From: Microglena sp. YARC
Taxonomy: Eukaryota > Chlorophyta > Chlorophyceae > Chlamydomonadales > Chlamydomonadaceae
DNA: 64,000 nt
Direction: 5' to 3'
Assembly: GCA_022414725.1 (NCBI GenBank)
Contig: CM039466.1
Span: forward strand, 19,376,925 to 19,440,924
The notes under the pieces are model-generated. The model saw only the letters and a program-made list of their open reading frames with translations. It ran no database searches and was not told the origin of the DNA. Numbering within the stretch: position 1 is the first letter of the stretch; the number at the start of each line of letters is the position of its first letter. This document shows positions 1 through 63,600 of this stretch, in pieces. The translations under genes were made by a program, and so were the position numbers.

Positions 1-170
1 GCAAGCTGTCAGGAAAGACAGCAATGCAGGGGTCAGCAATGCCAGGCCAGGTTATGTGCGTGGTGCAAAGCAAGGTGTCAGGAAAGACAGCAATGCAGGG
101 TTTAACACTGCCGGGCATTATGACCTGGATGGAAAGCAAGCTGTCAGGAAGGACAATAATTTAGGCTGCT
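1..170 (-). repeat. Copies of the 3' (donor) edge of the gene A exon
   Basis: On the minus strand, three partial copies of the last bases of the exon that ends at 439 follow it. They share TTCCTGACAGCTTGCTTT. The nearest copy (about 105-165) also keeps the donor junction, with CCAG followed by GTCATAATGCC. The others (about 45-100 and 1-30) have decayed donors. The array runs off the window edge. Confidence 0.65.
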
Positions 171-218
171 TGCTTTTTATTTGGCTTTACACAGCTTTAA
201 AGGGTGTTTCTGGGTGTA

Positions 219-365
219 CAAGGGTGCCGTAGGGGTGCAGAAAGGGTGCCGTAGGGGTGCAGAAAGGGTGCCTTAGGGGTGCAGAAAGGGTGCTGTAGGG
301 GTGCAGAAAGGGTGCCGTAGGGGTGCAGAAAGGGTGCCGAAGGGGTGCAGAAAGGGTGCCGAAGA
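219..365 (+). repeat. 22-bp minisatellite, about 6.5 units
   Basis: Tandem units of AAAGGGTGCCGTAGGGGTGC type, 22 bp long, differ at one or two bases. The array lies just downstream of the gene A exon, inside its presumed intron. It has no coding signal. Confidence 0.85.
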
Positions 366-438
366 CCCCCCAAATTTGCAGTGCCAGATTAGAAGAGTCC
401 TACTCAGTACAGTTGGCTACACTGCCGGGTATTATGAC

Positions 439-2393
439 CTGGGTGCAAAGCAAGCTGTCAGGAAGGACAAGAATTTAGGCTGCTTGCGTTTGGTCAGATC
501 ACTCTGAGCCTGTTGCTCAGTCTCTTCATTAACAGTGTTCAGCGCCTGAGGCAGGGAAGTATCAGCATTACTGAAGGCTAGCTGCTCTACCCTACCATAC
601 TCCACCGCATACTCCACTCCCTGGCCCCCCTCATGGAGGGATCTGTTCACTCTGGAGGGCTGAGGGGCAGAGGAGTGGGCATGCCCCTCGACTTCCTGGA
701 TCTCAAAGCCGGAAAAGGGCGACTTGAGAGGGCTAGCGCCAAGAATGCCCTCCTGGCAGCCAGCCCGATCATCACCATAGATAGTGACAGGGCGTGCAGC
801 TTTCCTTGCCGACATGGCACCTGTCCCTGGCGTGTTCTGTGTGTGGGCTGTAGGGATAGTGGAGGAGGCTGCAGTGGCAGCACTCAGAGTGGAGCGCAGG
901 CCGTGACGCCTCTGTCTGAGGTTGCGCAGGTTCGAGCCTCCCAGATGGGGCGCCTGAAGGATGAGCTCCATTAGGTGATTGTCAGAGAAGGGTACAGCGG
1001 AGTAGTCTGAGAATGGTGTTGGGCAGGTGGAGCTGGCTTGCTGGCCTAAGTAACCTGTCGGCAGTGAGGTACATGAATCTTCATCAAGGGGACAGCCCGA
1101 GGGGATTCTCGACAAGGATCGCCGTGGTGATGCATTAGGGCTTGCGACAGTTGCTGTGCTGTTGCGATGGGTGATGTTGGAGGGATCAGATCTGTGGCTG
1201 TGGCGGTGGCTGAGGGGGTTAGGGAAGCTGTGTGTGGAGCTAGAGCTGTGGCGGTGGCTGACTGCATTAGAGGAGCTGCGTACTGAGCCCTCTTTATTTA
1301 TCCTACTGGTTTGCTCATCCAGGCCTCGATCTCCCTTCCTAGCAATGTGATCCAAGCCCAACAGGTTTGCACTGCCAAAGCCTCGGAGGAGAGCCACCAG
1401 ATGATCGTGAGAATCAGCATCATGCCTCCTTCTCAGCCTCTGGGCTTTCAGAGGGTTTTCCGAACTGGTGGGGCTGCCCGGCAGCCCGCCATGGAGTCGG
1501 TCTAGAACAGTACTGAAGGAGGAGTGAGGAGGCTTTGTATTGGTGAAGTGGCACACGGTCGGATTCCTAGCATTGCTGCCCTTCTCAATGCTGCCCACAG
1601 AGTGTCGGGCTGGAAGTCCCTTTTCAATACCGCCTATATAATTGCGAGCTGGAGTGACCCGAGATGGGGTGGACCTTGCAGATTGGGAGGCTACTTCTGG
1701 ATGTCCTGGGACTGGGGTCAGGTAGCCGGTATAATTACGCAGCCAAGGTCTCGTGGGGAGCGGGCTTGTCCTATCCAGACTACAAATCGGGAGGGTTGGG
1801 CAGCTGTTCCTTGTTTGTTTACCGTGTGCGCGCTGAGGGGGCCTGAGACAGCGTCCCCTCAGTGGACTTCCCAATATATGAGGAATTCCGAAGAGTTGTG
1901 GACTTTCCGAGGATTTGTGCTTTGTGAAGGCCGAGCTCTGAGCATCAATCACTGGTGCCACAGTGTCGCTGGCAACTTGGGATCCCCCCCCGCCTGCCAC
2001 CTGACCTCCTGGCATCTGGCCAGCTTTCAGGGTCCTGGTGACACTGGCAGCACTGTCCCTGGTGTGTGCAGTGCCTCCCTTAGCTGAGTATTGATCTGAT
2101 GCAGAGTATCGGTCTGAGGCAGAGGCTCGCTCAGCATTGACCCAGGATCGATCGATTATGTTGACAGAGCCTAGCTCGGTGTTGGCTGATGATCGCTCTA
2201 CATCTGACAAGCAGGCCTCCGCATTCACCTTGCCTCCTCGGTACCTAGTGTTGAACGCACTGTCACGAGAGGGCAGAGAGGGCCTGTCAACCACTGGAGG
2301 GTGCAGCTTTAGCCTGCCAGGACCAGGGTTGCTGTCCGGCCTGACGGCCCGCTCCTCAAGGATCTCTTCTGAATCTGAGTAATCTGGTGAAAC
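439..2393 (-). CDS. Gene A: long internal exon of an unrecognised disordered protein
   Basis: Function not recognised. One uninterrupted exon encodes about 651 residues rich in Ser, Arg, Pro and Thr, with no membrane segment or known domain visible. It looks intrinsically disordered, with acidic (DSDSEEILEER-like) and Arg/His/Ser-rich stretches and a short internal repeat of the ARNYIGGIEKG / ARHSVGSIEKG type. The upstream boundary is a textbook 3' splice site: a pyrimidine tract ending CCTCCCAG before GTTTCACCAG at 2393. The downstream boundary is CACCCAG followed by GTCATA at 439, in phase 2. The donor is supported by partial copies of the same edge at 1-170. An open frame this long in mixed-composition DNA is unlikely by chance. 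The first exon may be at 4783-4899; the rest of the gene lies outside the window. Confidence 0.6.
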
Positions 2394-2530
2394 CTGGGAG
2401 GTAGGGGGGAAGGATAATACAACGGGTTCAGCTCATTGGTGTTGGTGGAGAAGGTGCCTCATAGAGTTGGAGTGCATTGCTGGAGGAGTGGGAGAGAAGA
2501 AAGATGGAGCGGGAATAGTGGACTGATAAA

Positions 2531-2672
2531 TAGGTATCGGCATATCATCTGATGTTGACCAAAGGCAAGTATGATATCATACAAACTGCATCATATGATA
2601 TTGTATGTATAGATGGTAACTCTAGCTTAGTCAGACTGCCGGCATTATATGATATCATATTGCTGTTCCCTA
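2531..2672. mobile_element. TAGG..CCCTA-ended MITE, copy 1 (degenerate)
   Basis: AT-rich element with palindromic ATATGATATCAT motifs. It aligns along its length with the better-preserved copy at 38907-39069. The right end is TTGCTGTTCCCTA and the left end is TAGGTATCGGCATATCAT. The flanking octamers match poorly, so no target duplication can be claimed here. Confidence 0.6.
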
Positions 2673-11137: not shown

Positions 11138-11225
11138 GTAATGATAACGCCTGGTGGGGCGTGGGATTAAGGGAGCCCTGTCTTACGGCGGTAGAGAACG
11201 GACTGCTCCTTTACCTGAAGGCATG
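11138..11225 (-). mobile_element. SINE 3'-end fragment (copy inside array)
   Basis: Matches the body end of the SINE described at 16745-16954 (GCCTGGTGGGGCGTGG, TTAAGGGAGCCC, TTACGGCGGTAGAGAAC). A second copy at 11633-11720 arose by array duplication. Confidence 0.7.
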
Positions 11226-14934: not shown

Positions 14935-15667
14935 TGTGTGGACAGGGATGCATTGCTGCATGCACTAATGCTGTTCCCTCTTTGAAAGCCGTAACTTCAA
15001 GAGCATTGTGTTTGAATGCATGCGCCAGCAGATTTTGACTGGGGTGCTTTGCTGTATGTACTAAATATGTTCAAAACCATAACTTCAAAAGCATTGTGTT
15101 TGAATGCATGCCCTTGCAGATGAGGACAGAGATGCATTGCTGAACGTACTACTGCTGTTCAAAACCATAACTTCAAGAGCATTATGTTTAATGCATGCAC
15201 CTGCAGATGAGGACAGAGATGCATTGCTGGAAGTACTAATGCTGTTCCCTCTCTTCCTTTGAACATAACTTCAAGAGCATCGTGTTTGAATGCATGCACC
15301 TGCAGATGAGGACAGAGATGCATTGCTGAACGTACTAAAGCTGTTCAAAACCATAAGTTCAAGAGCATTGTGTTTGAATGCATGCACCTGCAGATTTGGA
15401 CTGGGGTGCATTGCTGTGTGTACTAATGCTGTTCAAAACCATAAGTTCAAGAGCATTGTGTTTGATGCTTGCCCTTGCAGATTTGGGCAGAGATACATTG
15501 CTGTATGCACCAATGCTGTTTCCTCTCTCAAAGCTACAACTTCAAGAGCATTGTGTTTGAATGCATGCCCTTGCAGATGAGGACTGGGGTGCATTTCTGT
15601 ATGCATTAATGCTGTTCAAAACCATAAGTTCAAGAGCATTATGTTTCATGCATGCATGCACCTGCAG
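14935..15667 (+). repeat. Array copying the acceptor edge of gene X exon A
   Basis: About nine units of 80-90 bp each contain CACCTGCAG followed by ATGAGGACAGAGATGCATTG. This matches the real exon start at 15668 (CACCTGCAG, then ATATGGACAGAGATGCGTTG). The rest of each unit (AACTTCAAGAGCATTGTG, ATGCTGTTCAAAACCAT) is intronic. Every unit thus preserves a plausible 3' splice site. Confidence 0.8.
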
Positions 15668-17336: not shown

Positions 17337-17356
17337 GTACAAGCTTCGGGTTTAGT

Positions 17357-17699: not shown

Positions 17700-18634
17700 C
17701 CTTCCAACTGTTTTTTCACCTTCAAACCGTTGTTCACCTCCAAACTGTTTTTTCACCTTGAAGCTGTTTTCTCACCTCCAAACTGTTGGTTACTTGCAGA
17801 TATTTCACCTCCTACCTGTTCTTCACCTTTAAACCAGGTCCAACAGTTTTTTCACCTTGAAACTGTTGGGCGCTTACAGAACTACTATCCGCCTCAGATC
17901 ATGCCGCTTCAAGACGTTTTTCACCTCGAAACTGTTCAAACTGCATCTAAACCTTCCAAATTGTTGCTTCACCTTCCAGCTGTTTGTTCACCTCCAAGCT
18001 GTTGGATACTTGCAGAACTACTATCTGCCTCGGATCATGCCGCTTCAAGACGTTTTTCACCTCGAAACTGTTCAAACTGCATCTAAACCTTCCAAATTGT
18101 TGCTTCACCTTCCAGCTGTTTGTTCACCTCCAAGCTGTTGGATACTTGCAGAACTACTATCTGCCTCGGATCATGCCGCTTCAAGACGTTTTTCACCTCG
18201 AAACTGTTCAAACTGCGTCTAAACCTTCCAAATTGTTGCTTCACCTTCCAGCTGTTTGTTCACCTCCAAGCTGTTGGATACTTGCAGAACTACTATCTGC
18301 CTCGGATCATGCCGCTTCAAGACGTTTTTCACCTCAAAACTGTTCAAACTGCATCTAAACCTTCCAAATTGTTGCTTCACCTTCCAGCTGTTTGTTCACC
18401 TCCAAGCTGTTGGATACTTGCAGAACTACTATCTGCCTCGGATCATGCCGCTTCAAAACATTTTTTCACATTCAAACCATTTCTCACCTCCAAACCTTTG
18501 TTCACCTTCCAACTGTTTTTCCACCTTCAACTGCTGATTGCTTGCATAACTAATATCTGCCTCGGATCATGCTGCTTCAAACCGTTTTTCACCTTCCAAA
18601 CTGATTTTCACCTTCATCTGTTGGATGCTTGCAG
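17700..18634 (+). repeat. 136-bp array copying the acceptor edge of gene X exon C
   Basis: Five near-identical 136-bp units plus diverged ones each contain TTGCAG followed by AACTACTATCTGCCTCGGAT and CATGCCGCTTC. The real exon C begins TTGCAG then AACTACTATCAGCCTCGGAT. Because 136 is one more than a multiple of three, the array reads open in all three frames with the same peptide. Confidence 0.8.
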
Positions 18635-36714: not shown

Positions 36715-36749
<35 letters not shown>

Positions 36750-37212
36750 GCAGGGCGAAGGAGCAAAGCAGGAAAGCTGGCGCTATTGCATCAGCCAAGT
36801 GGATGCAAGGTGCCGCAAGGTGGAGGGAGGGCGGGGGGGCTTATCCGCGCGCGTAAGGAAAGGAACGGGCAGTAAGGCGGTTGGGAAGGGGGGGCAGAAG
36901 AGAGTCGCTACGTAAATGGAAGGCACACATGGGTAAGCATGGGCGCATTCGGAGGCGATGAGGCATTGGCCAACTCTTGAGACTGGGAGCAAGACCTTAC
37001 CATTGAGGTATGCATAGGAAGACGTAGTCGAAGTCGCCGAACCACGTGTTCTTGGAAGCCAAGGTTTTCTTGACCTCCGCCCCAGTGGGCATCCCGATCT
37101 TGGGCACAGGCATGCTGGCGATGGCACGCTTGAGGCACCTCAGCAGAAAAGTTCCGTTTAGGAACTGATGATTTGAGTTGACACACTTTGCGGGACTATA
37201 ATAAATTGCCAT
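31045..37212 (-). CDS. Nucleobase-ascorbate transporter (NAT/NCS2), xanthine/urate permease type
   Basis: A plasma-membrane H+-coupled purine permease by family. Seven exons on the minus strand join in perfect phase: 37212-37001, 36153-35978, 35624-35482, 35051-34879, 34387-33847, 33491-33288 and 31536-31045 (1,941 nt, 646 aa, stop at 31045). All introns are GT-AG. In order: N-terminal [12 protein letters not shown] junction; TM1 motif LQH at 101-103 (the QH conserved in UapA); [11 protein letters not shown]; a long Cys-containing extracellular loop (about 245-285); [12 protein letters not shown] with the conserved Glu396; and the NAT signature [10 protein letters not shown] at 448-457, followed by VASR. 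The C-terminal exon has [12 protein letters not shown] and a cytoplasmic tail. It is somewhat longer than fungal UapA-type proteins. The signature plus GVASR resembles bacterial XanQ and fungal UapA rather than plant NATs. The start could be the ATG at 37212 or an internal Met about 34 codons on (MPVPKIGM). Confidence 0.9.
31675..33195 (-). repeat. 1.5-kb pyrimidine array in the last NAT intron
   Basis: About 55 units of 27 bp (plus strand GATGTGAGAGTTAGGAGAGG plus CAAGGGG or CATGGAA). In transcript sense it is pyrimidine-rich, with recurring CTAAC, resembling a branch point. It has a single AG between about 31680 and 33190 (at about 31972). The unit matches the intron's own 3' end, whose plus-strand form is GAGAGTGAGAAGAGGCAAGG. 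Long open frames on both strands are artefacts. Confidence 0.9.
34560..34795 (+). repeat. 32-bp array in a NAT intron, about 7 units
   Basis: Units of GCTTGATTTGACACAGGGCA followed by CTTCATGCATGT; nearly perfect. It lies between the fourth and fifth NAT exons. Confidence 0.9.
35222..35311 (+). repeat. (TTACA)18 microsatellite
   Basis: Pentanucleotide run in the third NAT intron. Confidence 0.95.
36210..36350 (+). repeat. G-rich tract in a NAT intron
   Basis: GGGTGGG repeats and a poly-G run; another poly-G run of about 30 bases lies at 36717-36747 in the same intron. On the transcribed minus strand these are pyrimidine tracts. Confidence 0.8.
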
Positions 37213-37976
37213 CTGAGCAGCGCCTGTATACCCCGAACCCTGGCTTCTGCTTCTTTTCCCTGGCCGGCGTATAGCAAGTCGATACCTACCTGGACTTTGA
37301 CTCCCCTCATGCGTATCTGATTCGGCCCGGCTCCAGGTTACCCGGCTCCTAATTATCCATTATGATGTCATACCGCAACCGGGCGGGTTGCGGTACATTA
37401 TAACATTATATCAAAGCGAGCGGGAATGTCGCGATTTGGTCCCAACTCGTCCCAACAGCTACTTTTCGCAAATACGAATCCCAACTTAAGATAAATATTT
37501 GCCATCGCCATCGCTGCTGCTGCTGTCCTGATGGCAATTATCCATTGATTGTTTTGCTACTTTTCTTACGAGGCTGATGTTGACTGATTTTGAGGAACTA
37601 CCGGCAGCTCGCCGGTCTTCATGCAGCCAGCTACCACATCCAATGGAAGCTGTGCCAGGTCAGCCTTCAAGGCTTGGATGGAAACAACAGCTTTCCGTAC
37701 GAGTCCTGCTCCCCTGATCCTGCTCCCTCAAACAGCCTGTTTCTATTATAGGAACAGGTTACGGTCATGGGTAACCCCGCAAACTGTGGTGCGGGAATAC
37801 TCGTAACCCGTGTTCTAGCCAGCTTCCTGCCGCGTAACCCCGGCAGGCAATATTGGTTGAAAGGGTTGTTTAAAGCCCTCTCGAGTTCACGTGGCACACG
37901 CACATGCCCCCCGAAATCCCGGACGCCCAAGTACTGTCAAAATGTGCTTGCAAACCTGCAAAAACAGGTGGAACAA
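37213..37976. other. 5' flank of the NAT gene, nothing specific recognised
   Basis: No TATA-type element can be assigned with confidence. Contains an ATGATGTCATACCG / GGTACATTATAACATTATA region near 37360-37410. Confidence 0.35.
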
Positions 37977-38187
37977 GTTCTATGCAGCGTCGCCTGCGAC
38001 TTTAAAAATTGGCGGAGAGTGATCGCGACGGAGCGACAGATGGCAACGGAAGTGAGTTAGTAACGAGACCGTTGGCTGACGTGTCAGGCTTCATCGCGGT
38101 CAGACGGTCGGTCGAACGGGACGAAGGGGTTAACATGGGGGCTCCCTTCCCCTTGAAGAGGGGGCTCCGCGAAAAACTCGCACGTCT
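37977..38187. repeat. Dispersed repeat with hairpin, copy 2
   Basis: Inverse of 5377-5660. Shares TTGGCGGAGAGTGATCGCGA, GTTAGTAACGAG, GGCTGACGTGTC and GGGGGCTCC; lacks the (ATCC)n insert. Confidence 0.65.
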
Positions 38188-38689
38188 CAGTCAAAGTATG
38201 GAAATATATGTTGACCATGTCCGTCTTCACACGCACATCCTAGGGTATTCACAGACACGAACGTGATTAACTACCCCGAGTCCCTGGCCCTCACCTGGTT
38301 TCCATGCTCTAAATCACTAAATGAGTCAGAGTGAATCAACATTCGCGTTAACAACACAATTAGTCGAAATTCCTGATGTCTTAACCCCCCATCCCGCTCA
38401 GTGAAAAGGACTTTCCATTACATGACCTCTCCGTGACTCCGTGTTCGTCTCGTGGATATTCCCTGCCTTTTTTCCCGTCTCCTTTGATATCTCACTACCG
38501 GTAATTAGGCCTTAAAGACTGGAGAAAGCTATGTCTTCAGTTCAAGAAGCCTGCATTAGGTATGAATACCGGTAGGTTTTTTTGTTTGCTATTTTTTATC
38601 GTTTAGAAGAAGGGGAGGGAAGAATAAAATGGAAACAAGTGATTTGTTCGAGTTCACATTTTCCTGGTAATAATGTTTTTACCGCCGAG

Positions 38690-43242: not shown

Positions 43243-44106
43243 TCATGCCCCTGTCACCTCTCCCTCCTTTAACAAGGGGTCCACATGGCACCAGAAGGCA
43301 GCAGCGAAGGCGAGGTAGGCCAGCAACAGGATCATGCCGCGCAACCAGTTGGCAATGCCGTCGTGAGAGATGAAGAAGACCTGTGTGGGGGAAGGAGAGA
43401 AGTTAGGACAGACGATTTGCAATTATTATATGTATTCCCCCCATGCTCCCTTGCACACATGCCATCCTGCAAGCACCAGGCCTCGCTCTAAACACAGATG
43501 GAAGTACCATCATAGACAAACACGGCGTCCAGTGCCTGGGGGCCAGTTATTTTGTTCAAATCTGAAAGAGTGTTTTTACTAGCTTTATGGTTTTAGGCCA
43601 CCTCCAGGGACAGCGCTTTTGTGCTTTCTATAGCTTCTTGTAGCTTTTTAGGGCAAAGTTTTATTTGTATTTTTTTACTTTTCCTGTAGCGAGAATTTTG
43701 CCGAAACGGCGTCAAAACTAGCGATCGCTAAATAAAGAGGAAAATAAATCCTTGGTTGGTGTCAGGGATATTTTATCTGAAATACATACCGATCGGAATA
43801 CGAGACCCCGTTTTTGCCAAAAATGGCCGGAATAAGAAACCGTTTTTTTTTTAAAGCTGCAATTGACTACAAATGACCCCAATTGACAAAAAAAAAAATT
43901 GACCTCTCGGGCCGCTGCACGTTGCCCCCCGCATGGACCCTGCCGGACAGGGCATCAATGCAGGCATCAATAGCGCCAAACTCGTGACAATTTAGCAGGC
44001 ACTTAGATCAGCCCCCCCCTGGGTGTATCAACATAATTTCGATGGTATCGACCTGTGCTCGCGGTTCTCAATTCGTATCAAACATGCGGTACAAAATATT
44101 TTTTCT

Positions 44107-44148
<42 letters not shown>

Positions 44149-47100
44149 CCATATATACTATATATAATCGAAAAAAATCGATATCTAGATACGATTTAGT
44201 TTGCTACATATCCTTTGGTGGTTGGACCTGAACTGGTCAAGTCTGTAAACTGTCTATTCCGCATACCGGTTGTTGCCCCCCTGGCACGGGGGGGCTTGGC
44301 GTTGGAATACGGTGAGCAGCCCAGAGTTGGCTGAAAAAACATGTAAAAAAGCAATCCAATCCAATTGTCTGGTGATTGGACCCAGACCAAGCTAGCGGGC
44401 TGGCCCCCTCAACCTCACATCTCGTAATAAGACGTACTATTGATTTATTATGCTACATATATGCTATATATTTACTTATTATTACTTTATTATGCTACAT
44501 ATAATTACTTTATTATGCTACATATAATTACTTTATTATGCTACATATAATTACTTTATTATGCTACATATAATTACTTTATTATGCTACATATAATTAC
44601 TTTATTATGCTACATATAGGCTATATATTTATTTATTATGCTGCATATATGCGGGACCTGGGCAATTCTTTAAATGGTCTTATCCACATACTAATCACCA
44701 CGCCCCTCCAGGCGTTTGTTTTTCAATCCACATAAGGGTAGTGTTCTCCTCCTTGAGCTTCAGGTCCACGGTCCATTGTTTATACCCACCAAATTGCTAC
44801 AAATCCTGGACCTGGACAATTATTATGCCACAGATACTGCACCTGGACAAGTCTTTAAATAGTCCAATCCACATAGCGGTAGTGTTATCCTTTTTGAGGT
44901 TCGGGTCCACGGTCCATTCTGTTTTGGAAACCCAACAAATCACTACAAATCCCGGAACTGGACAATTATTATGCCACAGATGCTGGACTAGGACAGTTCT
45001 TTAAATTGTCCAATCCACATACCGGTAGTGTTATCCTCTTTGAGGTTCGGTTTGAAACCCACCACATTGCTACGAATCCTGGACCTGGACAATTATTATG
45101 CCACAGATGCTGGAGTAGGACAATTCTTAAAATGGTGTCATCTCCATAGTACTTCTAACAAGGAGACTCTTTTATGGTGACTACTGCTAGTTCCCGCTTG
45201 CGCAGTGGAGTCCTTAACTTCTCGTCCTGAGGGTGGCACATTACTCGGACGTAACCATTTTAATTTCAATTTCATCTGCATAGTATGCTCCTGGTTGAGG
45301 TTCAGCGGTCCATGGGCTGCCCCATCATGCATTATCGTTTTGAGACAACCAACCCTGCACCAACATCATATTTTTGAAACTAACATGCCCCATACCATGT
45401 TTGAAACCCACCAGTATGACGGTCATGAGGAGAACCCATAATTCAAAGGTGTTGGTTGAGTTCAGCTCCAAGGGATGCCCCACAAAGCATTCTGCTTTTC
45501 TGCACTAACATGCCCCATACCATGTTTGGAATCCATCACTATGACGGTTATGAAGATTATTTTTGGAACCCACCAATATGACAGTCATGAGGAGAACCCA
45601 TGATTCAAAGGTGTGGTTGAGGTTCAGCTCCAAGGGATGCCCCACCAAGCATTCTGTTTTTCTGAGCCAATCAACCGAATCAACCGAACCAACATTATAT
45701 TTTGAAATTATCAACATGCCCCTTACATGTTTGTCCCCCACCAATATGACAGTCATGAGGAGAACCCATGACTCAAAGGTGTTGAGGTTCAGCTCCAAGG
45801 GATGCCCCACCAAACATTCTGTTTTTCTGCACCAACATGCCCCATACCATGTTCGGAATCCTCTACTATGACGGTTACGAACATTATTTGTGTAACCCAC
45901 CAATATGACGGTCATGAGGAGAACCCATGATTCAAAGGTGTTCAGGTTCAGATCCATGGGCTGCCCCATCATGCATTCTGTTTTTCTGAACTAACATGCC
46001 CCATACCATGTTTGAAACCCACCAGTATGACGGTCATGAGGAGAATCCATGATTCAAAGGTGTTCAGGTTCAGGTCCATGGGCTGCCCCATCATCCAAGC
46101 TAGGAGCACAGCAAAGGGCAGGATGAGGACAAGAATCTGCGTAGAGCTTCCTGCAAAGGTACACGTAGAGGTCAAGGTGAAAGTGGGCTGTTACAGTAAA
46201 GTACACTAAAGTTAAGGTGAAAGTTAAGTAAGGGTTAAGGTGAAAGTGAGCAGTTACAGTACAGGACAGTACAGTAAAGGTGAAATGTAAAGGTTAAGGT
46301 AAAAGGCAGCAGTTACAGTAAAGTAAAGGTGAATGTGAGCAGTGAAGTAAAGTAAAGTAAAGTGAAGTAAAGTAAAGTAAAGTAAAGTAAAGTAAAGTAA
46401 AGTAAAGTAAAGTAAAGTAAAGTAAAGTAAAGTAAAGTAAAGTAAAGTAAAGTAAAGTAAAGTAAAGTAAAGTAAAGTAAAGTAAAGTAAAGTAAAGTAA
46501 AGTAAAGTAAAGTAAAGTAAAGTAAAGTAGAGTAGAGTAGAGTAGAGTAGAGTAGAGTAGAGTAGAGTAGAGTAGAGTAGAGTAAAAGTAAAATAAAGGT
46601 TAAGGGCAAAGTAAGGTAAATGTGAGCAGTTGGGTTGGGTCATTGAGCGTGACAGCACTTAAGTGTGTTCTGATTCGTTTTTGTCTTAGCATTTGCAGGG
46701 TAAGCAGCAGAATCTGGGCCGAGCCTCTTGTGAAGACAATTAGAAGGGAGGTGGGCAGTTGGGTTGGGTGTGACAGCACGTAAGAGTGTTCTGATTTGTT
46801 TTCTTTTCTTTTCTGTCTTAGCCACTTTGTCTTTGTCTTTGCCGGTAAGCACCAGAATCTGGCCGTGTGAAGGCAATTAGAAGGGAGATGGGCGGTTGCA
46901 TTGCGTGAGACAGCAGTAGAGTGTGCTCTGATTTTTTTGTCTTAACCACTTCGATTTTGTCTTTGTCTTGTCTTTGCCGGATAAGCAGCAGAATCTGGGT
47001 TGAGGATCCCGAGAAGACTAGGAGGAAGGTGAGCAGTTGCATTGCATGAGACAGCAGTAGAGTGTGCTCTGATTCGTTTTTTTCTTTGCCACTTTCTTTT

Positions 47101-50100
47101 TGTCTTTGTCAGATGAGCAGCAGAATCTGGGACGAGCCTCGAGTGAAGACAATTAGAAGGGAGGTAAGTAGTTGGGTTGGGTGAGACAGTAGATAGGTGA
47201 GTTCTGATTCGTTTTTATCTTAGCCACTTTGATTGTGTCTTTGTCTTTGCCGGATAAGCACCAGAATCTGGGATGAGCTTGATGTAAAGACAAGTAGGGG
47301 GAAGGTGAGTACGTAGATTGGGTGTGACAGCAGTTGAGTGTGCTCTGATTCGTTTTTATCTTGCCACTTTTAATTCTAAGGGGTAAGTTAATTTTGGGAC
47401 CCCAAGAGCATCTAACGCACACAAGGGTCTCAAACTGTCATAGTAATGGTTAGGGATTATTTGTTGAAATCTGAAAGTGGTTTTTTCTAGATCATTGATT
47501 TTAGGGCTCCTCCAGGGACAGCACTTTGTAGCATTTATAGCTTTTAAGGGCCATAGAGGGGATTGGTTTTTACTTTGTATAGAGAGAATGATAATTTGGG
47601 CCCAAATGGGGTCAACAGTGGCGATCGAAAATCCCTGGTAAGGATTACACCAGGTGGGGCGTGGTATTAAGGGAGCCCCATCTTACGGCGGTAGATACCG
47701 GGCTGCTACTGTACCTGGACATAGCTACCATGGTGGTTGACAGTGGCCACGAACACTAAAGCGCACCCGGAGGGATTCGAAACCCACACCTTTTGATTTT
47801 AACGAGCTCTACCATTGAGCCAAGTGTCGAAATAGGAACCAAACCGTTATATTTACCTGCATTATTGAATAATATAATTTGGTAAATGGAGCAAACAACT
47901 CATCCATGATGGCGCATTATGGTACATTTAGATTAGATGTTTATATAAGATGTTAAGATTAACGTATCAAGATAGTTTGGCTACTGGAGCTGGTGGGAAG
48001 CTGCCAGCAGTAGCCCCCAATAGAAACTGTGATTACCTTCCTCGTCAGCATCTATCCATCAATATAATCTGGTGAATGGAGCATACATCAATAAATAGTA
48101 CGCCTTGCTATGAGGCGTGAGGTTGAGGGGGCCAGCCTTTTTGCTTTCACTGGGGCCAACCACCAATAGGGGGGTGGGTGGGTGGGTGGTGGGGGGGGGG
48201 CTATCATCCCCATGGGGGAGGTTTTTTGGGCCTGTTCTATGTGTCTTCTGCACGCAACAATGGACTGGAAGGAGATGAATGGAGCAAACAACTCACCCAC
48301 GGACTTTTGTAAGCCCCCTTCACGGTTGGGCAAGTACCTTTACCCTATTTGGCCTACACCTGGACTGTAACATACACACGTACATACATACATACACACA
48401 CACATACAAACATACATACATTCATACATACATACAAACAACTCACCCATGACAATTCCCATGGTAACCTCCAGCTTGTTCTTGATGGCAAAGATGATGG
48501 CTACTGAATGTTCACTTGCATTGTTGATAATGGGCAGCAGGATGACAACAAGGAAGGGCAGAGGCACATTCATTTCAACGGCAGCACCCTGCATGGAAGA
48601 GGGTGGCATGGTTTGTGGGTGTTACTGTTGGTGTTGGTGTTGTTGGTGTTGGTGCTGCTGCTGTTTCATTTTTGATAAGGGCAAAAGGATGACGACCAGG
48701 AAAGGTAGAGGCACATGCATTTCATCGGTGGCACCCTGCATGGAGGAGGGAGGCATGGTTTGGGGTGTTGGTGTTGGTGATGGTGCTGCTGCTGTTTCAT
48801 TGTTGATAATGGGCAAAAGAATGACAACCAGGAAAGGCAGAGGCACATGCATTTCATCGGCGGCACCCTGCAGAGATGCATATGGGGTGAGGTTTACGGC
48901 AGCGGGTTTGTGAGGGTGGGGCTGGGTTTGTGGAGGTGAGGCTGGGGTTGTTGGGGGTGGGGGTGGGTTTATGACCGTTGAGATGCATGTGTGGTGGGGG
49001 TGATAATGGGCAGCAGGATGACAAACAGGAAAGGCAGAGGCACATGCATTTCAACGGCAGCACCTTGCATGGAGGGGGGAGGTATGGTGGGGGGAGGCAT
49101 GGTGTTGGGGGGGGGGGGGGGGGGGGCGCTGTTGCATTGTTAATAATGGGTGACAAGCTGGAAAGGTAGAGGCACATGCATTTCAACGGCAGCACCTTGC
49201 ATGCAGAAGGGAGGAGGTAGGCAAGGTGTTGGGGCGCTGGTGGTGTAATGTTGATGATGGCAAGCAAGATGGCAAGCAGGAAGGACAGAGGCACAGCCAG
49301 GACAAAGCCAGGACAAACCCACCCTCACATCCACCCACCCACCCACATCCACCCACCCAGACACCCACACCCAGGGCAAAGGAGGGCAAAGGAGGGCAGA
49401 GGTATGCCTTCAACAGGATTAGGACATACCACAATTGACGTCACGAGGTAGTCAGACAGGATGGCTATCAGCAACGCCACAACCCCCATCGTGGTCACTG
49501 CACTCGTGCGACTGATGGAAGGGCCGTCCTCATCCTCGTCATCGCTCTTCACGGGGCGTGGAGTGTCAGGGGCGACGGCTATGGTGTGGTCGTCGCTACC
49601 ACCAGCCATCTGCAACAGAGGCTGATCATCACTACAACGGCTCTTTTCATCATCGCTGGCGCTGTCGCCATCCTCCTCGTACAGGTCCCTGCAAGTGTTG
49701 ACATATGCTGTTACATCTCTTGTTACATAGGATATCGTGTATTGGATATATCATTGATTGCATAGGATATTATGAGGTCCTATGTAACATATATTGGACA
49801 TAGGATATCATATTACATGACTTCATTGGTCACAACTGCCACGCCTCTTGCCATCATCGCTATCATTATCCTCCTCGTACAGGTCCCTGCAATTGTTAAC
49901 TTGTACGTGCATGTTTCGGTCCAGGGGTAGCCAAGTAGGCTCAAGGGAGGCTGGTCACAACTGCCACGTCTCTTGCCATCATCGCTGTCGCCATCCTCCC
50001 TGTACAGGTTCCTGCAAGTGTTGACATGTCTTGTTGCATGTCTTGTTACATAGGGTATCATATCGCATGACTAGGTCAGCCAGTTCTGCTGCGTCTATTG

Positions 50101-52497
50101 CCATCATCGCTGTCGCCATCCTCCTCGCACAGGTTCCTGCAAGTGTTGACATGTTTTGTTACATAGGATATCATATTGCATGACTTCATCCGTTACAAAT
50201 GCCACGTCCATTGCCATCATCGCTGTCGCCATCCTCCCTTGCACAGGTTCCTGCAAGTGTTGACATGTGCTGTTAAATCTCTTGTTACATAGGGTATCAT
50301 ATCACATTACGTCATTTGTCACCACCGTCTCGTCTATTGTAATCATCGCTGGCGCCATCCTTCTCGTACTTATCCATGCAAGTATTGACATGTCTGTGCA
50401 TGTTTCGGTCCAGGGGTAGCCAAGTAGGCTAAAGAGAGGATATTCACAACTGCCACGTATCTTGCCATCGGTGCTGTCACCATCCTCCTCGTTCAGGACC
50501 CTGCAAGTGTTAACATGCACGTGCATCTTACAGTCCATTGCTCCCTTTAGAATGTGCCACAATGTTGTTTTCGTCCGAATTTGAGCGACTCGGTCGACCC
50601 CAGTGCAACGCACTGTCATTGTTTCAGTTCGGAGGGGGGGGGGGGGGGGGGGGGGGGGCATATCTGGCTAGTTTAGCCAGAATCATGCGTCGCTGCTTGG
50701 CGACATGATGACAAGGGGAAATGGGGACGCTTTGTTAGGAAGACAAAATGTGGCGACGCATTGTTGGAAAAAAAAAAAAAAAAGGGGGGAAGCGTCATTG
50801 GAAGAAAAAAAAAAAGTGGCGACGCGTCATTGGAAGAAAAAGAAAGTGGCGACGCGACGCTGGAAGAAAAAAAGTGGCAACGCAACGTTGGAAGAAAAAA
50901 GTTTCAACATCAGCCCACTCTGGAGGGTGGGAACTCTCTTGTGTCATCATAATACGACCAAGTCCAAAGCTCGTAGCGACGCGGAAACTTGACGGAGAGT
51001 GTTAGCTATCGGAGCGCCAGGTGGCACCAGAATCGAGTGCAGCAGACCGAAGCCAGGGTTTACGACAGGGCCAGGGGCCAGTTAGGGCCAGGGACGTGCG
51101 GATAACAAGACAAACGGACCACGTGGTGACCCTGGGGGCTCCGCTAATACAATCAATAACAGGGGAATGAAATATTTATATTGCAACATGAAATACAGAA
51201 ATGAAACATGAACAGACAAATAAGTACGTATACAAATGAAATGAAACAAACACAAATTAATTTGTGCACATGTAATCGTGCATAAATTCACTTGTTTGTG
51301 TGTAAACATCTGGAAGACCATGTAGCCAGCATACACCAACATGTATAAACTCACAACATCTGGAAGACCACGTAGCCAGCATACGTCAACATATATAAAC
51401 TTACAACATCTGGAATACCATGTAGCCAGCATACGCCAACATGTATAAACTCACTTGTGTGTAAACATCTGGAAGACAATGTAGCCAGCATACGCCAACA
51501 TGTATAAACTCACATGTGTGTACACATCTGGAAGACCATATAGCCAGCATACGCCAACATGTATAAACTCACTTGTGTGTAAACATCTGGAACCCATGTA
51601 GCCAGCATACACCAACATGTATATACTCACAACAAGTGGAAGACCATGTATAAACATCCGCTAACATGTATAAACTCACTTGTGTATAAACATCTGGAAG
51701 ACCATGTAGCCAGCATACGCCAACATGTATATACTCACAACAAGTGGAAGACCATGTATAAACATCCGCTAACATGTATAAACTCACTTGTGTGTAAACA
51801 TCTGGAAGACAATGTAGCCAGCATACGCCAACATGTATAAACTCACATGTGTGTACACATCTGGAAGACCATATAGCCAGCATACGCCAACATGTATAAA
51901 CTCACTTGTGTGTAAACATCTGGAACCCATGTAGCCAGCATACACCAACATGTATATACTCACAACAAGTGGAAGACCATGTATAAACATCCGCTAACAT
52001 GTATAAACTCACTTGTGTATAAACATCTGGAAGACCATGTAGCCAGCATACGCCAACATGTATATACTCACAACAAGTGGAAGACCATGTATAAACATCC
52101 GCTAACATGTATAAACTAACTTGTGTATAAACATCTGGAAGACCATGTAGCCAGCATACGCCAACATGTATAAACTCACCTGTGTGTAAACATCTGGAAG
52201 ACCATGTAACCAGCCTCTGCCAACATCTATAGACTCACTCGTTTGTAAACATCTGGAAGACCATGTAGCCAGCATACACCAACATGTATAAACTCACTTG
52301 TGTGTAAACATCTGGAAGACCATGTAGCCAGCATACGCCAACACCATCAAGACTGATATGAAGCGACTCAACCTAAGCAGCCGATCAGTCCCTGGGCTGA
52401 AGCTGCTGCTGTCGAACAGGACAGACGGCATGAACACGCAGAGCGTTCCAAACCACAGGAGAGTCATATTCATCATGCATATCTGCTTGTTGAAGGT
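43243..52497 (-). CDS. CAX: Ca2+/H+ antiporter (CAX family), C-terminal five exons
   Basis: By family, a vacuolar-type cation/proton exchanger that loads Ca2+ into acidic stores. Exons: 52497-52298, 49688-49430, 48588-48447, 46150-46023 and 43380-43243, with GT-AG introns and matching phases; 288 residues visible. In order: TFNKQICMMNMTLLWFGTLC; LSRFISVLMVLAYAGYMVFQ with MFTHK (the LSR...FQL.TH block of fungal Vcx1); an acidic linker DLYEEDGDSASDDEK...; ALLIAILSDYLVTSIV; the second alpha-repeat PFLVVILLPIINNASEHSVA; GSSTQILVLILPFAVLLAWM; and NTFESWILLMTVIL. The last exon gives VFFISHDGIANWLRGMILLL and then a short hydrophilic tail ending TGA. The canonical GNAAEH is NNASEH here. The N-terminal part, with the first alpha-repeat, must lie above 53.7 kb; the 53.74-59.2 kb array carries copies of the preceding exon end. 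Confidence 0.9.
43557..43765 (+). repeat. 220-bp dispersed repeat, copy 2
   Basis: AAATCTGAAAGAGTGTTTTT, CACCTCCAGGGACAGCG, GTCAAAACTAGCGATCGCTA, AATAAATCCTTGG. It is in the last CAX intron. Confidence 0.75.
44112..44146 (+). repeat. Poly-C run of about 35 bases
   Basis: Homopolymer in the last CAX intron; its length is probably unreliable in the assembly. Confidence 0.9.
44213..44440 (+). repeat. Dispersed repeat TTGGTGGTTGG...CCCCCTCAACCTCAC
   Basis: Related pieces at 23225-23290, 39832-39905 and 48088-48172 share the GGTGGTTGGCCCCAGTG and AGCGGGCTGGCCCCCTC blocks and a following TACTATTTATT. This one appears split by inserted sequence. Confidence 0.5.
44440..44640 (+). repeat. 26-bp AT-rich array
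   Basis: ATTATGCTACATATAATTAC followed by TTT, about seven units. Confidence 0.9.
44650..46000 (-). repeat. Array of donor-edge copies of the CAX exon 46023-46150
   Basis: At 45290-46000, about six units repeat, in transcript sense, GGACCTGAACCTGAACACCT, TTGAATCATGGGTTCTCCTC, ATGACCGTCATACTG and the donor GTGGGT. From 44650 to 45290, more diverged 120-130-bp units keep GTGGACCCGAACCTCA-type remnants. An SINE 3' fragment (CACGCCCCTCCAGGCGTT) sits at 44698-44715. Confidence 0.8.
46340..46590 (+). repeat. (AGTAA)n/(AGTAG)n microsatellite
   Basis: About 50 pentamers in the intron upstream of CAX exon 46023-46150; the long frames in it are artefacts. Confidence 0.95.
46660..47400 (-). repeat. 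Array of acceptor-edge copies of the CAX exon 46023-46150
   Basis: Six or seven units of about 110 bp contain, in transcript sense, GCTCGTCCCAGATTCTGCTG followed by CTTATC. This corresponds to the exon start GAAGCTCTACGCAGATTCTT. Each is preceded by pyrimidine-rich sequence (CCTTCTAATTGTCTTCAC). Confidence 0.75.
47465..47640 (+). repeat. 220-bp dispersed repeat, copy 3
   Basis: GAAATCTGAAAGTGGTTTTT, CTCCTCCAGGGACAGCAC, AACAGTGGCGATCGAAAATC, CCTGG; shorter than the others. Confidence 0.7.
47646..47836 (-). mobile_element. tRNA-derived SINE with head type B, uninterrupted
   Basis: Minus strand: A-box TTGGCTCAATGGTAGAGC, B-box GGTTTCGAATCCC, then GTGCGCTTTAGTGTTCGTGG, CCACTGTCAACCACC and the shared 3' body. 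It shows the intact sequence across the MITE site at 41640. Confidence 0.8.
47880..48310 (-). repeat. Two donor-edge copies of CAX exon 48447-48588, plus dispersed repeat
   Basis: GGTGAGTTGTTTGCTCC follows the exon end in transcript sense; related segments occur at about 48283-48300 (donor intact) and 47888-47912 (donor changed to GATGAG). Between them lies a piece of the GGTGGTTGG dispersed repeat. Confidence 0.5.
48650..49215 (-). repeat. Array of acceptor-edge copies of CAX exon 48447-48588
   Basis: Four or five copies (about 48690-48750, 48805-48870, 49005-49075 and 49150-49205) have CATGCAGGGTGCCGCC or a variant. Then come GAAATGCATGTGCCTCTGCC and, in most, TTTCCTGGTTGTCATTCTTT and CCCATTATCAACAATG. 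They break off after roughly 75 bases. Confidence 0.8.
49850..50530 (-). repeat. Array of acceptor-edge copies of CAX exon 49430-49688
   Basis: Six units of about 115-140 bp, in transcript sense: CAACACTTGCAGGAACCTGT, ACGAGGAGGATGGCGACAGC, GATGATGGCAAGA. They match the first 45-60 bases of the real exon. Two units have absorbed a GGGGTAGCCAAGTAGGCT dispersed repeat. Confidence 0.8.
50634..50920 (+). repeat. Poly-G run and 30-bp GACGCGTCATTGGAAGAAAA array
   Basis: Poly-G at 50634-50658, followed by five units of GTGGCGACGCGTCATTGG plus AAGAAAAA. No gene. Confidence 0.8.
51300..52290 (-). repeat. Array of donor-edge copies of CAX exon 52298-52497
   Basis: About 17 units of 49-65 bp read, in transcript sense, GTTGGCGTATGCTGGCTACA, TGGTCTTCCAGATGTTTACA, CACAA and then GTGAGTTTATAC. 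They copy the last 45-50 bases of the exon together with its 5' splice site. A larger unit (about 327 bp) is itself duplicated between 51450 and 52110. Confidence 0.9.
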
Positions 52498-52609: not shown

Positions 52610-53700
52610 ATGGGGGCGGCATGAACATGCAGAGCGTTCCAAACCACAGGAGAGTCATATTTATCATGCAGATCAGCTTATTGAAGGTCTGTGGTGGGTG
52701 GGGTGGGGTAGGGTGGGTGAGTGGGGTAGGGGTGGAGGCGGTGGTGGTGGTGGTGGTGGTGGTGGTGGTGGGCAGGTAAACAGAGAATTCCGAACCACAT
52801 GAGCGTCATGTTCATCATGCAGATCTGCGTGTTGAAGGTCTGTGGTGGGTGGGTGGGGTAGGGTGGGTGAGTGGGGTAGGGGGTCGGGGTGGAGGCGGTG
52901 GTGGTGGTGGTGGTGGTGGGCAGGTAAACAGAGAATTTCGAACCACATGAGCGTCATGTTCATCATGCAGATCTGCGTGTTGAAGGTCTGTGGTGGGTGG
53001 GGTGGGGTAGGGTGGGTGAGTGGGGTAGGGGGTCGAGGTGGAGGCGGTGGTGGTGGTGGTGGTGGTGGGCAGGAAAACAGAGAATTTCGAACCACATGAG
53101 CGTCATATTCATCATGCAGACCTGCGTGTTGAAGGTCTGTGGTGGGGTGGGGTGGGGTGGAGTGGGGGGGTGGGGTAGGGTGGGGGTGGTGGTTTGGTTT
53201 GGGTCGGGGTGGGGGTGGGGTGATGGAGGGGGGGGGGGGGGGGGGGGATGGGGGGCAGCATATACAGGCAGAGCGTTCAAAACCACAGGATTGTTACGTT
53301 CATCATGTAGATCTGCTTGTTGAAAGTCTGCGGTGGGTGAGTGGGGAAGGGTGGGGTGGGTTGGGGAGGGGGGTTTGGTTTGGTTTGGTTTGGTTTGGTT
53401 TGGGGTGGAGGTGGTGGTGTGGTGGTGGGAAGAAGGGGGGGGGGGGGGGGCATGAACAAGTAGAGAATTCCCAACCACATGTGTGTCATGTTCAGCATGA
53501 AGATCTGCTTGTTGAAGGTCTGCGGTGGGTGGGGTGGGGTGGAATGGTGGTGGTGGTGGTGGTGGTGGTGTGTGTGTGTGGGGAGGGGGGTATGTGTGTG
53601 TGTGGGGGGGGGGGGCAGGTAAACAGAGTATTCCATACCACATAAGTTGCATGTTCATCATGCAGATCTGCCTGTTGAACGTCTGCAGTGGTGTTGGGTG
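52610..53700 (-). repeat. Array of acceptor-edge copies of CAX exon 52298-52497
   Basis: Seven units of about 140-200 bp contain, in transcript sense, a C-rich tract, CTGCAG or CCACAG, then ACCTTCAACAAGCAGATCTG, CATGATGAACATGAC and GTGGTTTGGAACGCTCTG, fading into intron. The CACCACCACC tracts lie on the pyrimidine side of the acceptor. Confidence 0.9.
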
Positions 53701-53739
53701 GGGTAAGGTGGTGTTGGGTGGGGTAGAGGGGTCAGTGGA

Positions 53740-60212: not shown

Positions 60213-60239
60213 GGAAAAGAGAGAGATAACTGGTAAGGC

Positions 60240-60690: not shown

Positions 60691-60724
<34 letters not shown>

Positions 60725-62125
60725 AGTACGTCAACATGCAGCCAACTGGTAAGGCTGGCTAGACCCCATCCAGGTGTGTGTTTGTGTGCATGCGTTTGTG
60801 TGTGTGTACTCCACATGCAGCAAACTAGTAAGGCTGGCTGGACCCCATCCAGGTGTGTGTTTGTGTGCGTGTGTTTGTGTGTGTGTACTTCACATGCAGC
60901 CAACTGGTAAGGCTGGCTGGACCCCATCCAGGTGTGTGTTTGTGTGCGTGTGTTTGTTTGTGTGTACTTCACATGCAGCCAACTGGTAAGGCTGGCTGGA
61001 CCCCATCCAGGTGTGTGTTTGTGTGCGTATTTTTGTGTGTGTGTACTCCACATGCAGCCAACTGGTAAGGCTGGCTGGACCCCATCCAGGTGTGTGTATG
61101 TGTGCGTGTGTTTGTGTGTGTGTACTTCAAAATGCAGCCAACGTAAGGCTGCTGGACCCATCCAGGTGTGTGTTTGTGTGCGTGTGTTTGTGTGTGTGTA
61201 CTCCACATGCAGCCAACTGGTCAGGCTGGCTGGACCCCATCCAGGTGTGTGTTTGTGTGTGTGTGTTTGTGTGTGTGTACTTCACATGCAGCCAACTGGT
61301 AAGGCTGGCTGGACCCCATCCAGGTGTGTGTTTGTGTTGCGTGTGTTTGTGTGTGTGTACTTCACATGCAGCCAACTGGTAAGGCTGGCTGGACCCCATC
61401 CAGGTGTGTGTTTGTGTGCGTGTGTTTGTGTGTGTGTACTCCACATGCAGCCAACTGGTAAGGCTGGCTGGACCCCATCCAGGTGTGTGTATGTGTGCGT
61501 GTGTTTGTTTGTGTGTACTTCACATGCAGCCAACTGGTAAGGCTGGCTGGACCCCATCCAGGTGTGTGTTTGTGTGCGTGTGTTTGTGTGTGTGTACTCC
61601 ACATGCAGCCAACTGGTAAGGCTGGCTGGACCCCATCCAGGTGTGTGTTTGTGTGTGTGTGTGTTTTGTGGTGTGTGTACTTCCAACATGCCCACCAACT
61701 TGTAAGGCTGGCTGGACCCCATTCAGGTGTGTGTTTGGTGCGTGTTTTGTGTGGTGTTGTAATTCACATGCAGCCAACTGGTAAGGCCTGGCTGGACCCT
61801 CCAGCGTGTGTGTTTGTGTGCGTGTGTGTTTGTGTGTGTACCCACATGCAGCCAACATGGTAAGGCTGGCTGGACCGATCAGGTGTGTGTTTGTTGTGCG
61901 TGTGTTTGTGTGTGTGTACTTCACAATGCAGCCACAACTGGTAAGCTGGCTGGGCCCCATCCAGGTGTGTGTTTGGTGTGCGTGTGTTGTGTTGTGTACT
62001 TCACATGCAGCAAAACTGGTAAGGCTGGCCGACCCCCATCCAGGTGTGTGTTTGTGTGCGTGTGTTTGTGTGTGTGTACTTCACATGCAGCCAACTGGTA
62101 AGGGCTGGCTGGACCCCATCCTTTA
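60240..62125 (+). repeat. 79-bp array with plus-strand splice-like junctions
   Basis: About 24 units: CTTCACATGCAGCCAACTG, then GTAAGGCTGGCTGGACCCCA, TCCAGGTGTGTGTTTG and (GT)-rich sequence. CCAACTG followed by GTAAGG is a strong 5' splice site on the plus strand. By analogy with the other arrays this would be the donor edge of a gene Y exon hidden in the gap. Confidence 0.7.
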
Positions 62126-62129
62126 GGTG

Positions 62130-62540
62130 TGTACTCACTTCTTTCCTGCTATCTTCTCCCCCCACCCCCACCCACCCGCCCCCCCCTTCGCGTCCGCTTC
62201 CTCATCCCACTCATGTCCCTCCCTCCCAATATCCCACACCCACCTCCACCCCACCACCCCTGGTGTCCCTTACCCTTACCCCCCACACATACGCACACTC
62301 ATATCCCTTACCCGTTACCCCCCCACATGTCCCTTAACCCCCGCCCCCCCCCTTTACTCACGCCCGCTTGCCTTACCCCAACCATGCACCTTACCCTTAC
62401 CCGCCCCCCACCCCGCACACACACACACTCACGTCCCTTACCCTGCCACCCCATGCCCTTACGCCTTACCCCCTACCCCGCTCATGCCCCTAAATCTTAT
62501 CCCCACCTGCTCATACGCCCGTACCCTTCCATGCTTTCAT
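62130..62540 (+). repeat. C-rich CCCTTACCC low-complexity stretch
   Basis: Pyrimidine-rich on the plus strand (CCCTTACCC, CCACACACAC). It precedes the acceptor copies of gene Y and gives no coding signal. Confidence 0.6.
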
Positions 62541-62544
62541 GTAC

Positions 62545-62910
62545 AAGAAACATGAAGTACAGTTTGTTGGAGCTTCTGCTCACATCCTCTCCCTCCAATA
62601 CCTCCCTCACTCCACCCACCCACACCACCCCAACTGCTGGCTGCAAGAACATGAAGTACAAGTTTGTTGAGGCTTCTCTCACATCCTCTCCCTCCACTCC
62701 CCTCACCCACCCACCCACACCCACTAGCTTGCTGCAGAACATGAGTAACAAGTTTGTTGAAGCTTCTGCTCACCATCTCTCGCCTCCACGCTCCCCTCAA
62801 ACACTCACACACTCACACACATCTCTCGTCTCTTCTCATCTCTCGTCTCACACGACACACACAGTGACACACACGACTGCTTCTGCAGAACAGTGAGTAG
62901 CAAGTTTGTC
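62545..62910 (+). repeat. Acceptor-edge copies of the gene Y exon
   Basis: Four units at about 62558, 62645, 62735 and 62886 have a pyrimidine-rich stretch ending CTGCAG or GCAAG. Then come AACATGAAGTACAAGTTTGT and TGAGGCTTCT or variants, matching the first 30 bases of the exon at 63144. Confidence 0.75.
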
Positions 62911-63143
62911 AATCTTCTGCTCACATTCTCTCCCTCCACCATCTCGCACATACACTCTCTCCACAACACACACACACACAAGCACGCACACACGCATACA
63001 CATCTCCCCCCCCCCCCCCCACCCCCCTTCACACACACACACACATACTCTCCCACCACCCTCCCTCCTACGACCTAACCATCCGCACGCGGACCACACC
63101 ACACACCCACACAACCAAACACCCCACACAACTGCTTATCCAG

Positions 63144-63218
63144 AACATGGAGTACAAGTTTGTTGAGCTTCTGAGTTGTGGTTTCATCGCCTCCTCTGAG
63201 GAGGTTGTGAGGCAGCAG
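63144..63218 (+). CDS. Gene Y exon (function unknown)
   Basis: Not recognised. A 75-nt exon between CTTATCCAG and GTGGGTTG. The open frame reads NMEYKFVELLSCGFIASSEE followed by VVRQQ, with both splice sites canonical. It is identified as an exon mainly because its 5' edge is repeated four times upstream and its 3' edge plus donor (GTTGTGAGGCAGCAG, then GTGGGTTGTAGC) twice downstream. The phase is not certain. Confidence 0.5.
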
Positions 63219-63394
63219 GTGGGTTGTAGCCTCCTCAACCTTTTTTGAATAGTGTGGTTACATTTGTACATTAAGATTACGAGTGAAGTTGCATTTAGTG
63301 AGTTACATTTTACATTTTTCAGAGTGTAGTTACATTCTTAACTTTTCGGCCGGTATTTCATATTAATATGGTATTCTTTTATGTATTGAGCTCT

Positions 63395-63600
63395 GACTTG
63401 GAATTCATCGCTCTAGATGAGATTGTGAGGCAGCAGGTGGGTTGTAGCTCCTGGGCTCAGTATTTAAATATTTAGTGTATCTATACTCACTCTCTCACCA
63501 CTCTCTCTCACACTCGCTCCTTGAAGCTTCTGGCTGTGGTTCATTCCTCCTATAAAGAGGTTGTGAGGTAGCAGGTGGGCATTGTAGCGCTCCTGGGCAG
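63395..63600 (+). repeat. Donor-edge copies of the gene Y exon
   Basis: AATTCATCGCTCTAGATGAG, ATTGTGAGGCAGCAG, GTGGGTTGTAGC at 63400-63451, and TTCATTCCTCCTATAAAGAG, GTTGTGAGGTAGCAG, GTGGGC at 63541-63585. Confidence 0.75.

What the first reader, a model, noticed from the sequence alone, without database searches (positions are those of the whole stretch)
1..63600. Exon-edge arrays: introns filled with serial copies of the neighbouring splice junctions
In four independent genes, on both strands, intronic arrays are built from the adjacent exon edge. Arrays upstream of an exon repeat [3' splice site + first 20-75 nt of exon]. Arrays downstream repeat [last 30-70 nt + 5' splice site]. Seen at: gene A donor edge (1-170); gene X exon A acceptor edge (14935-15667) and donor edge (15861); exon C acceptor edge (17700-18634); CAX exons 52298-52497 (both sides), 49430-49688 (upstream), 48447-48588 (upstream, with a weak downstream echo) and 46023-46150 (both sides); and gene Y 63144-63218 (both sides). 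Copies are truncated at the inner side and diverged from each other, so this is a recurrent process and not one duplication. The result is dozens of decoy splice sites per intron. I know of no named element or mechanism that does this. Replication slippage or break repair seeded at exon-intron junctions is one possibility; a role in splice-site competition is another.
Basis: partly seen in the sequence, partly recalled or inferred. Interest (0 to 1): 0.9.

Follow-up and report, generated by a model that had tools for sequence, protein, structure and literature searches.

The report
Exon ends repeated into neighbouring introns
In a green alga, introns beside many exons hold rows of cut-off copies of those exon ends, splice sites included; they were likely made by runaway tandem duplication and are likely harmless because splicing is predicted to use the innermost, intact sites.

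Summary
The arrays are real and not confined to this window. In the window's CAX-type Ca2+/H+ exchanger gene, 40-nt exon-edge queries find 42 direct copies beside 6 of 10 exon ends; one of 420 comparisons with non-adjacent regions passed, from the same terminal exon. A nine-exon permease gene in the window has 0 of 18. Two chaperonin (CCT) genes on other contigs, chosen before looking at their repeats, have 21 copies beside 7 of 27 ends, against 0 of 27 on the wrong side and 0 of 378 controls. One CAX array repeats the stop-codon end, where no splice site exists. Decoy sites keep GT/AG in 31 of 36 (CAX) and 17 of 22 (CCT) cases; for CAX this is what background divergence predicts. Best reading: a genome-wide tandem-duplication habit, in which exon ends are caught about as often as intron DNA, and survive because the copy falls outside an intact exon. 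Single duplications of this kind are published; kilobase arrays at many junctions are a new variant.

The parts
52298..52497 (-). CAX exon ca1, bordered by edge arrays on both sides
   Evidence: homology and splice sites
52649..53682 (-). acceptor-edge array of ca1, 7 copies
51296..52277 (-). donor-edge array of ca1, 13-14 copies, with a 333-nt higher-order repeat
49430..49688 (-). CAX exon ca2
49868..50500 (-). acceptor-edge array of ca2, 6 copies
48447..48588 (-). CAX exon ca3 (donor set by conservation, not by the EukProt model)
48698..49196 (-). acceptor-edge array of ca3, 4-5 copies
46023..46150 (-). CAX exon ca4
45412..45940 (-). donor-edge array of ca4, 4 copies of the last 40 exon nt (7 pieces with a longer query, down to about 45300)
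47240..47308 (-). one diverged copy of the ca4 acceptor junction
43243..43380 (-). CAX terminal coding exon ca5 with stop codon
41948..43096 (-). array past the stop codon built from the coding end of ca5, 7 copies of the last 40 nt
31045..38342 (-). xanthine/uracil permease gene, 9 exons, no exon-edge copies (internal negative case)
31683..33211 (-). 27-nt x 56 array in permease intron 8, like the 3' splice-site pyrimidine tract of exon 9, no exon part
14996..15620 (+). gene X (unverified) exon A acceptor-edge array, 7 copies
17720..18600 (+). gene X (unverified) exon C acceptor-edge array, 7 copies
62549..63600 (+). gene Y (unverified) exon 63144-63218 with 4 upstream and 2 downstream edge copies
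89..440 (-). gene A (unverified) donor edge and 2 copies

Best explanation
The rows are direct tandem copies of DNA segments that cross exon ends, likely made by the same runaway tandem duplication (slippage or unequal exchange) that fills this genome's introns, and likely kept because splicing is predicted to pair the innermost, intact sites across each exon. Shown: direct orientation, copies on the outer side, truncation inside the exon, matches confined to the adjacent intron or flank, presence in three of four conserved genes tested, one array at a stop codon, and no significant excess at junctions over collapsed intron DNA. Inferred: a duplicated segment holding the end of an intron and the start of an exon leaves the inner copy with the whole exon, while the outer copy becomes intron; the mirror case holds at donors and, without splicing, at the stop codon. 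In exon-defined genes with long introns the sites closest across the exon are preferred (measured in human genes and minigenes, PMC9225289), so outer decoys would be almost silent and arrays could lengthen. Duplications inside the exon would be purged.
For: Copies at 6 of 10 CAX ends and 7 of 27 CCT ends, with 1 of 420 and 0 of 378 control hits and 0 of 27 wrong-side hits in the CCT genes. Exon ends amplified at about the rate of collapsed intron DNA: 11 of 48 against 7.8 expected, P 0.14. Array past the stop codon. Intron-only array at permease intron 8. Higher-order repeat in the ca1 donor array. Splice dinucleotides kept as background predicts: 31 of 36 against 79-80%. All four CAX introns are 841 nt or longer. 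Using the nearest decoy would break the frame: stop at once past the ca1 donor, 17 codons past the ca4 donor, in-frame stops from the nearest ca2 and ca3 decoys, and a shift of 191 nt from the nearest ca1 acceptor decoy.
Against: No RNA was available, so silent decoys are untested. The cross-exon rule is from human cells and is weaker at 3' splice sites in the passages seen. The permease has 0 of 18 ends although 93 of 224 of its intron windows are in repeats. Upstream CAX exons were not found in the window or in the next 50 kb, so CAX may be a truncated gene; the CCT genes do not share this doubt. Exon-interior windows also have local copies in 6 of 28 (CAX) and 9 of 57 (CCT). A lean of copy-to-copy changes to third codon positions (p 0.06 and 0.03) is not explained.
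Confidence: 0.72

Rival explanations
1. Junction-seeded extrusion: something at exon-intron borders (pyrimidine tracts, R-loops, stalled transcription, break repair with short homology) starts the duplications, and the exon edge goes on emitting copies outward.
For: Hand-set seed test on CAX and permease: 5 of 13 families, 1.4 expected, P 0.003. Identity falls with distance from the exon in the ca1 acceptor array (rho -0.89, p 0.007) and the stop-end array (rho -0.65, p 0.043). Half or more of the CAX ends are hit.
Against: Automated test over four genes: 11 of 48, 7.8 expected, P 0.14. Array at a stop codon. The gradient is reversed in the ca1 donor array (rho 0.61, p 0.027) and absent in three others. 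0 of 18 permease ends.
Confidence: 0.12
2. Functional decoys: the copies are kept by selection to tune splicing, for example by holding splicing factors near the exon.
For: Splice dinucleotides are intact in 31 of 36 CAX and 17 of 22 CCT copies; all 13 ca1 donor decoys keep GT.
Against: CAX retention does not differ from background identity (p 0.53 and 0.32); two of four ca3 decoys have lost AG; the stop-end array has no splice site; the permease does without.
Confidence: 0.06
3. The copies are real alternative or repeated exons of multi-repeat proteins.
For: Differences from the exon lean to third codon positions (96, 64 and 146 mismatching cells at positions 1, 2, 3).
Against: CAX and permease coding sequences read through with one terminal stop and no copy included; the copies reach only partly into the exon; in-frame stops follow. 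The lean between copies alone is weak (p 0.06 and 0.03), and changes in the exon itself would also produce it.
Confidence: 0.05
4. Assembly artefact: misjoined long reads multiplied the edges.
For: A 1000-N gap at 59213-60212 with indel-rich copies beside it.
Against: CAX copies differ from the edge by 3-21%, mostly by substitutions, with shared differences; the same picture appears on two other contigs, where the fetched stretches hold no N.
Confidence: 0.03

Closest known systems
Tandem duplication across an intron-exon boundary in potato RdRp (PMC4974935; abstract and passages seen)
   Same: A duplicated segment crosses the end of an intron and the start of the next exon, carrying pyrimidine tract and 3' splice site.
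   Different: One duplication, and it made a new intron; here there are up to 14 copies per end, at many ends, at donors, acceptors and a stop codon, and no new intron is needed.
Internal gene duplication and introns from tandem arrays (Gao and Lynch 2009; Zhuo et al. 2007; seen only as reference entries in PMC3488318; not held)
   Same: Tandem duplication inside genes that involves splice signals (content recalled from titles and general knowledge).
   Different: As recalled, they concern intron gain or new alternative introns, not truncated exon edges that lengthen existing introns.
Minisatellites
   Same: Direct arrays of 20-160-nt units with higher-order repeats.
   Different: The unit is an exon end with its splice site rather than anonymous DNA.
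Cross-exon proximity rule of splice-site choice (PMC9225289; passages seen)
   Same: Predicts that beside long introns the site nearest across the exon wins, which here is the intact one.
   Different: Measured in human genes and minigenes; the 3' splice-site effect is weaker in the passages seen; not tested in algae.

Membership tests
Minisatellite array | direct tandem units of about 10-160 nt | tested here: met
   TRF rows with periods 59, 108, 113, 159 and others; forward scores up to 78, reverse-complement at most 27
[quoted passage not shown]
   junction-spanning alignments in CAX and CCT genes
[quoted passage not shown]
   CAX and permease coding sequences read through with one intron at each place and all copies inside introns or flanks
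Introner elements | near-identical element present in introns of many unrelated genes | tested here: not met
   exon-edge queries against non-adjacent regions: 1 of 420 (same exon) and 0 of 378 reach 36; whole-genome dispersal of single units not tested
Introner elements | target-site duplications or terminal inverted repeats | not tested
   no call looked for them
Tandem (mutually exclusive) exon duplication | copies are complete exons with both splice sites | tested here: not met
   CAX splice-end copies reach 29-75 nt into exons of 128-259 nt
Functional decoy exon or splice site | use or effect on splicing | not testable with these tools
   no RNA data held

The most novel reading that the evidence does not exclude
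Across a 568-Mb algal genome introns lengthen largely by copying themselves, exon ends included, so that many exons are flanked by rows of near-perfect decoy splice junctions; only strong cross-exon pairing by the spliceosome makes this bearable, and each lengthening favours that mode further, a self-feeding route to long introns.
Probability: 0.35. Interest if true: 0.75.

Novelty: new variant of a known kind. Interest (0 to 1): 0.58.

Why it matters
It shows a route by which introns can grow from their own borders, and it offers natural tests of splice-site choice: up to 14 nearly identical splice sites in one intron, of which the innermost is thought to be used, in housekeeping genes as well. 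It also warns gene finders: the EukProt models of both window genes skip conserved pieces.

Tried and rejected
Junction seeding: a hand-set test favoured it; an automated test on four genes did not. Serial copying from the exon: distance gradients in 2 of 6 arrays, reversed in 1, absent in 3, so not general. Inverted copies: none at threshold. Upstream CAX exons: none in the window or 50 kb beyond; a search of the genome for a full CAX did not complete. Related viral contigs: 5 pattern matches, none confirmed. Species: Cymbomonas was a first guess and is not supported; a permease tree puts the window with Chromochloris, Scenedesmus and Tetradesmus at 89/91, under the tool's mark. Passages of two Cymbomonas papers show nothing like this. 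Gene X: no homologue. Papers: nine searches listed no title that describes exon-edge arrays; most subscription papers are not held, so this does not prove absence.
Full report
What the window is. It is nuclear DNA of a green alga, contig C5 of an unnamed assembly of 568,105,699 bases in 2390 contigs. Two genes in it have homology support. One is a CAX-type Ca2+/H+ exchanger on the minus strand, of which five exons lie between 43,243 and 52,497. The other is a nine-exon xanthine/uracil permease, minus, 31,045-38,342 (Pfam hit). The EukProt proteins P0001 and P0021 match the window exactly in 232 of 240 and 635 of 636 residues, so they come from this genome or one nearly identical. I departed from their models in places where conserved residues were skipped (the donor of ca3 and acceptor of permease exon 8) and extended the last CAX exon to its stop codon. 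With these borders both coding sequences read through with one terminal stop, and all 12 introns are GT-AG. The first half of CAX was not found in the window or in the next 50 kb, so this CAX may be truncated.

The observation. A 40-nt query of exon sequence from each of 28 exon ends was aligned to its adjacent intron or flank and, as control, to the other regions (at the CAX stop end the query held 2 nt past the stop). Six of 10 CAX ends pass, with 42 copies: ca1 acceptor 7, ca1 donor 14, ca2 acceptor 6, ca3 acceptor 4, ca4 donor 4, ca5 stop end 7. The ca4 acceptor has one diverged copy, found with a longer query. None of 18 permease ends passes. One of 420 controls passed, the acceptor end of ca5 against its own 3' flank.

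Outside the window. Exon borders were set from the family match, GT/AG and recalled CCT sequence; one donor reads GC. The same test gives 7 of 27 ends with 21 copies, 0 of 27 on the wrong side of the exon and 0 of 378 against other regions; two more ends score 33 and 34. One acceptor (CCT-b exon 4) has six copies at 158-nt steps. So three of four conserved genes tested show the feature, on three contigs.

Anatomy. Copies are direct and lie on the outer side. In CAX they reach 29-75 nt into splice-bordered exons of 128-259 nt and 63-123 of 138 nt at the stop end. Identity to the edge is 0.79-0.97 in CAX. Splice dinucleotides are kept in 31 of 36 CAX copies (7/7, 13/13, 5/6, 2/4, 4/6), where background predicts 79-80%, and in 17 of 22 CCT copies. 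In permease intron 8 a 27-nt unit repeated 56 times resembles the pyrimidine tract before exon 9, with no exon part (28 copies of the last 40 intron nt).

Is the junction special? Three tests were run. By coverage in the window, 201 of 362 usable CAX intron windows and 7 of 10 CAX ends have a local copy; in the permease 93 of 224 and 0 of 18. A seed test with families set by hand gave 5 of 13 against 1.4 expected (P 0.003; 0.0006 to 0.04 with other lengths; 0.025 without the diverged family, 0.007 to 0.16 with other lengths). A third, automated test tiled all 24 introns of the four genes, weighted each tile by one over its copy number, and compared the 48 exon ends that border them: 11 copied, 7.8 expected, P 0.14; per gene CAX 4 of 8, permease 0 of 16, CCT-a 3 of 12, CCT-b 4 of 12. 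Against plain coverage 22.9 are expected (P for 11 or fewer 0.0003). I take the automated test as the fairest: exon ends are amplified about as often as any other intron-side DNA. With the array at a stop codon, this argues against a splice-specific cause.

How the arrays grew. Copy-to-copy identity is below copy-to-exon identity in all six CAX arrays tested, and 8 columns differ between the exon and all copies. Identity falls with distance in two arrays, rises in one, and shows nothing in three. Mismatches to the exon lean to third codon positions (96, 64, 146), and variable columns among copies do so weakly (46, 38, 60, p 0.06; minimum changes 56, 42, 69, p 0.03). Changes in the exon itself, repeated copying from it, or mutable third positions could each do this.

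Mechanism. Inference: tandem duplication is frequent in this genome. One that crosses an exon end leaves the exon whole on the inner side and turns the outer copy into intron or flank, so it costs little if splicing uses the inner site. In human genes and minigenes beside introns over about 250 nt, the sites closest across the exon are preferred, exclusively so for equal 5' sites in the tested minigenes; the 3' effect is weaker (PMC9225289, passages). Use of the nearest decoys would break CAX in the five cases checked. None of the splicing argument was tested in the alga.

Relation to the known. A single duplication across an intron-exon border is published in potato (PMC4974935, abstract and passages). 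Nine searches of open literature listed no title on arrays of exon edges. I rate it a new variant of a known kind.

Noticed in passing
60213-62200: About 79-nt units on the + strand each carry CATGCAG, a 32-nt exon-like piece and CCAG followed by GTGTGTG: motifs for both splice sites, with no source exon seen.
   Followed up: no
53690-55300: 108-nt units (minus strand) each contain ACCATG followed by GTAGGT; they might be donor-edge copies of a missing CAX exon, but the protein match is not significant (E 24).
   Followed up: partly
60213-60700 and 61700-62000: Repeat copies near the 1000-N gap are rich in single-base indels, as if long-read errors were left uncorrected.
   Followed up: no
15805-15860: The stretch just after the gene X exon A donor has about 40 matches of 79-89% identity over the genome, so it belongs to a dispersed repeat family.
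   Followed up: no
17283-17350: Gene X exon B has a second diverged copy of its donor half with donor site downstream.
   Followed up: partly
11128-11250, 11623-11745 and 40732-41268: A peptide stretch like DNAWWGV.LREP recurs on opposite strands about 30 kb apart, perhaps a dispersed mobile element.
   Followed up: no
19809-20753: A 15-nt unit GCTGCCTCAGATCAT repeated about 63 times resembles the start of gene X exon C (GCCTCGGATCATGCC), some 1.2 kb downstream of it.
   Followed up: no
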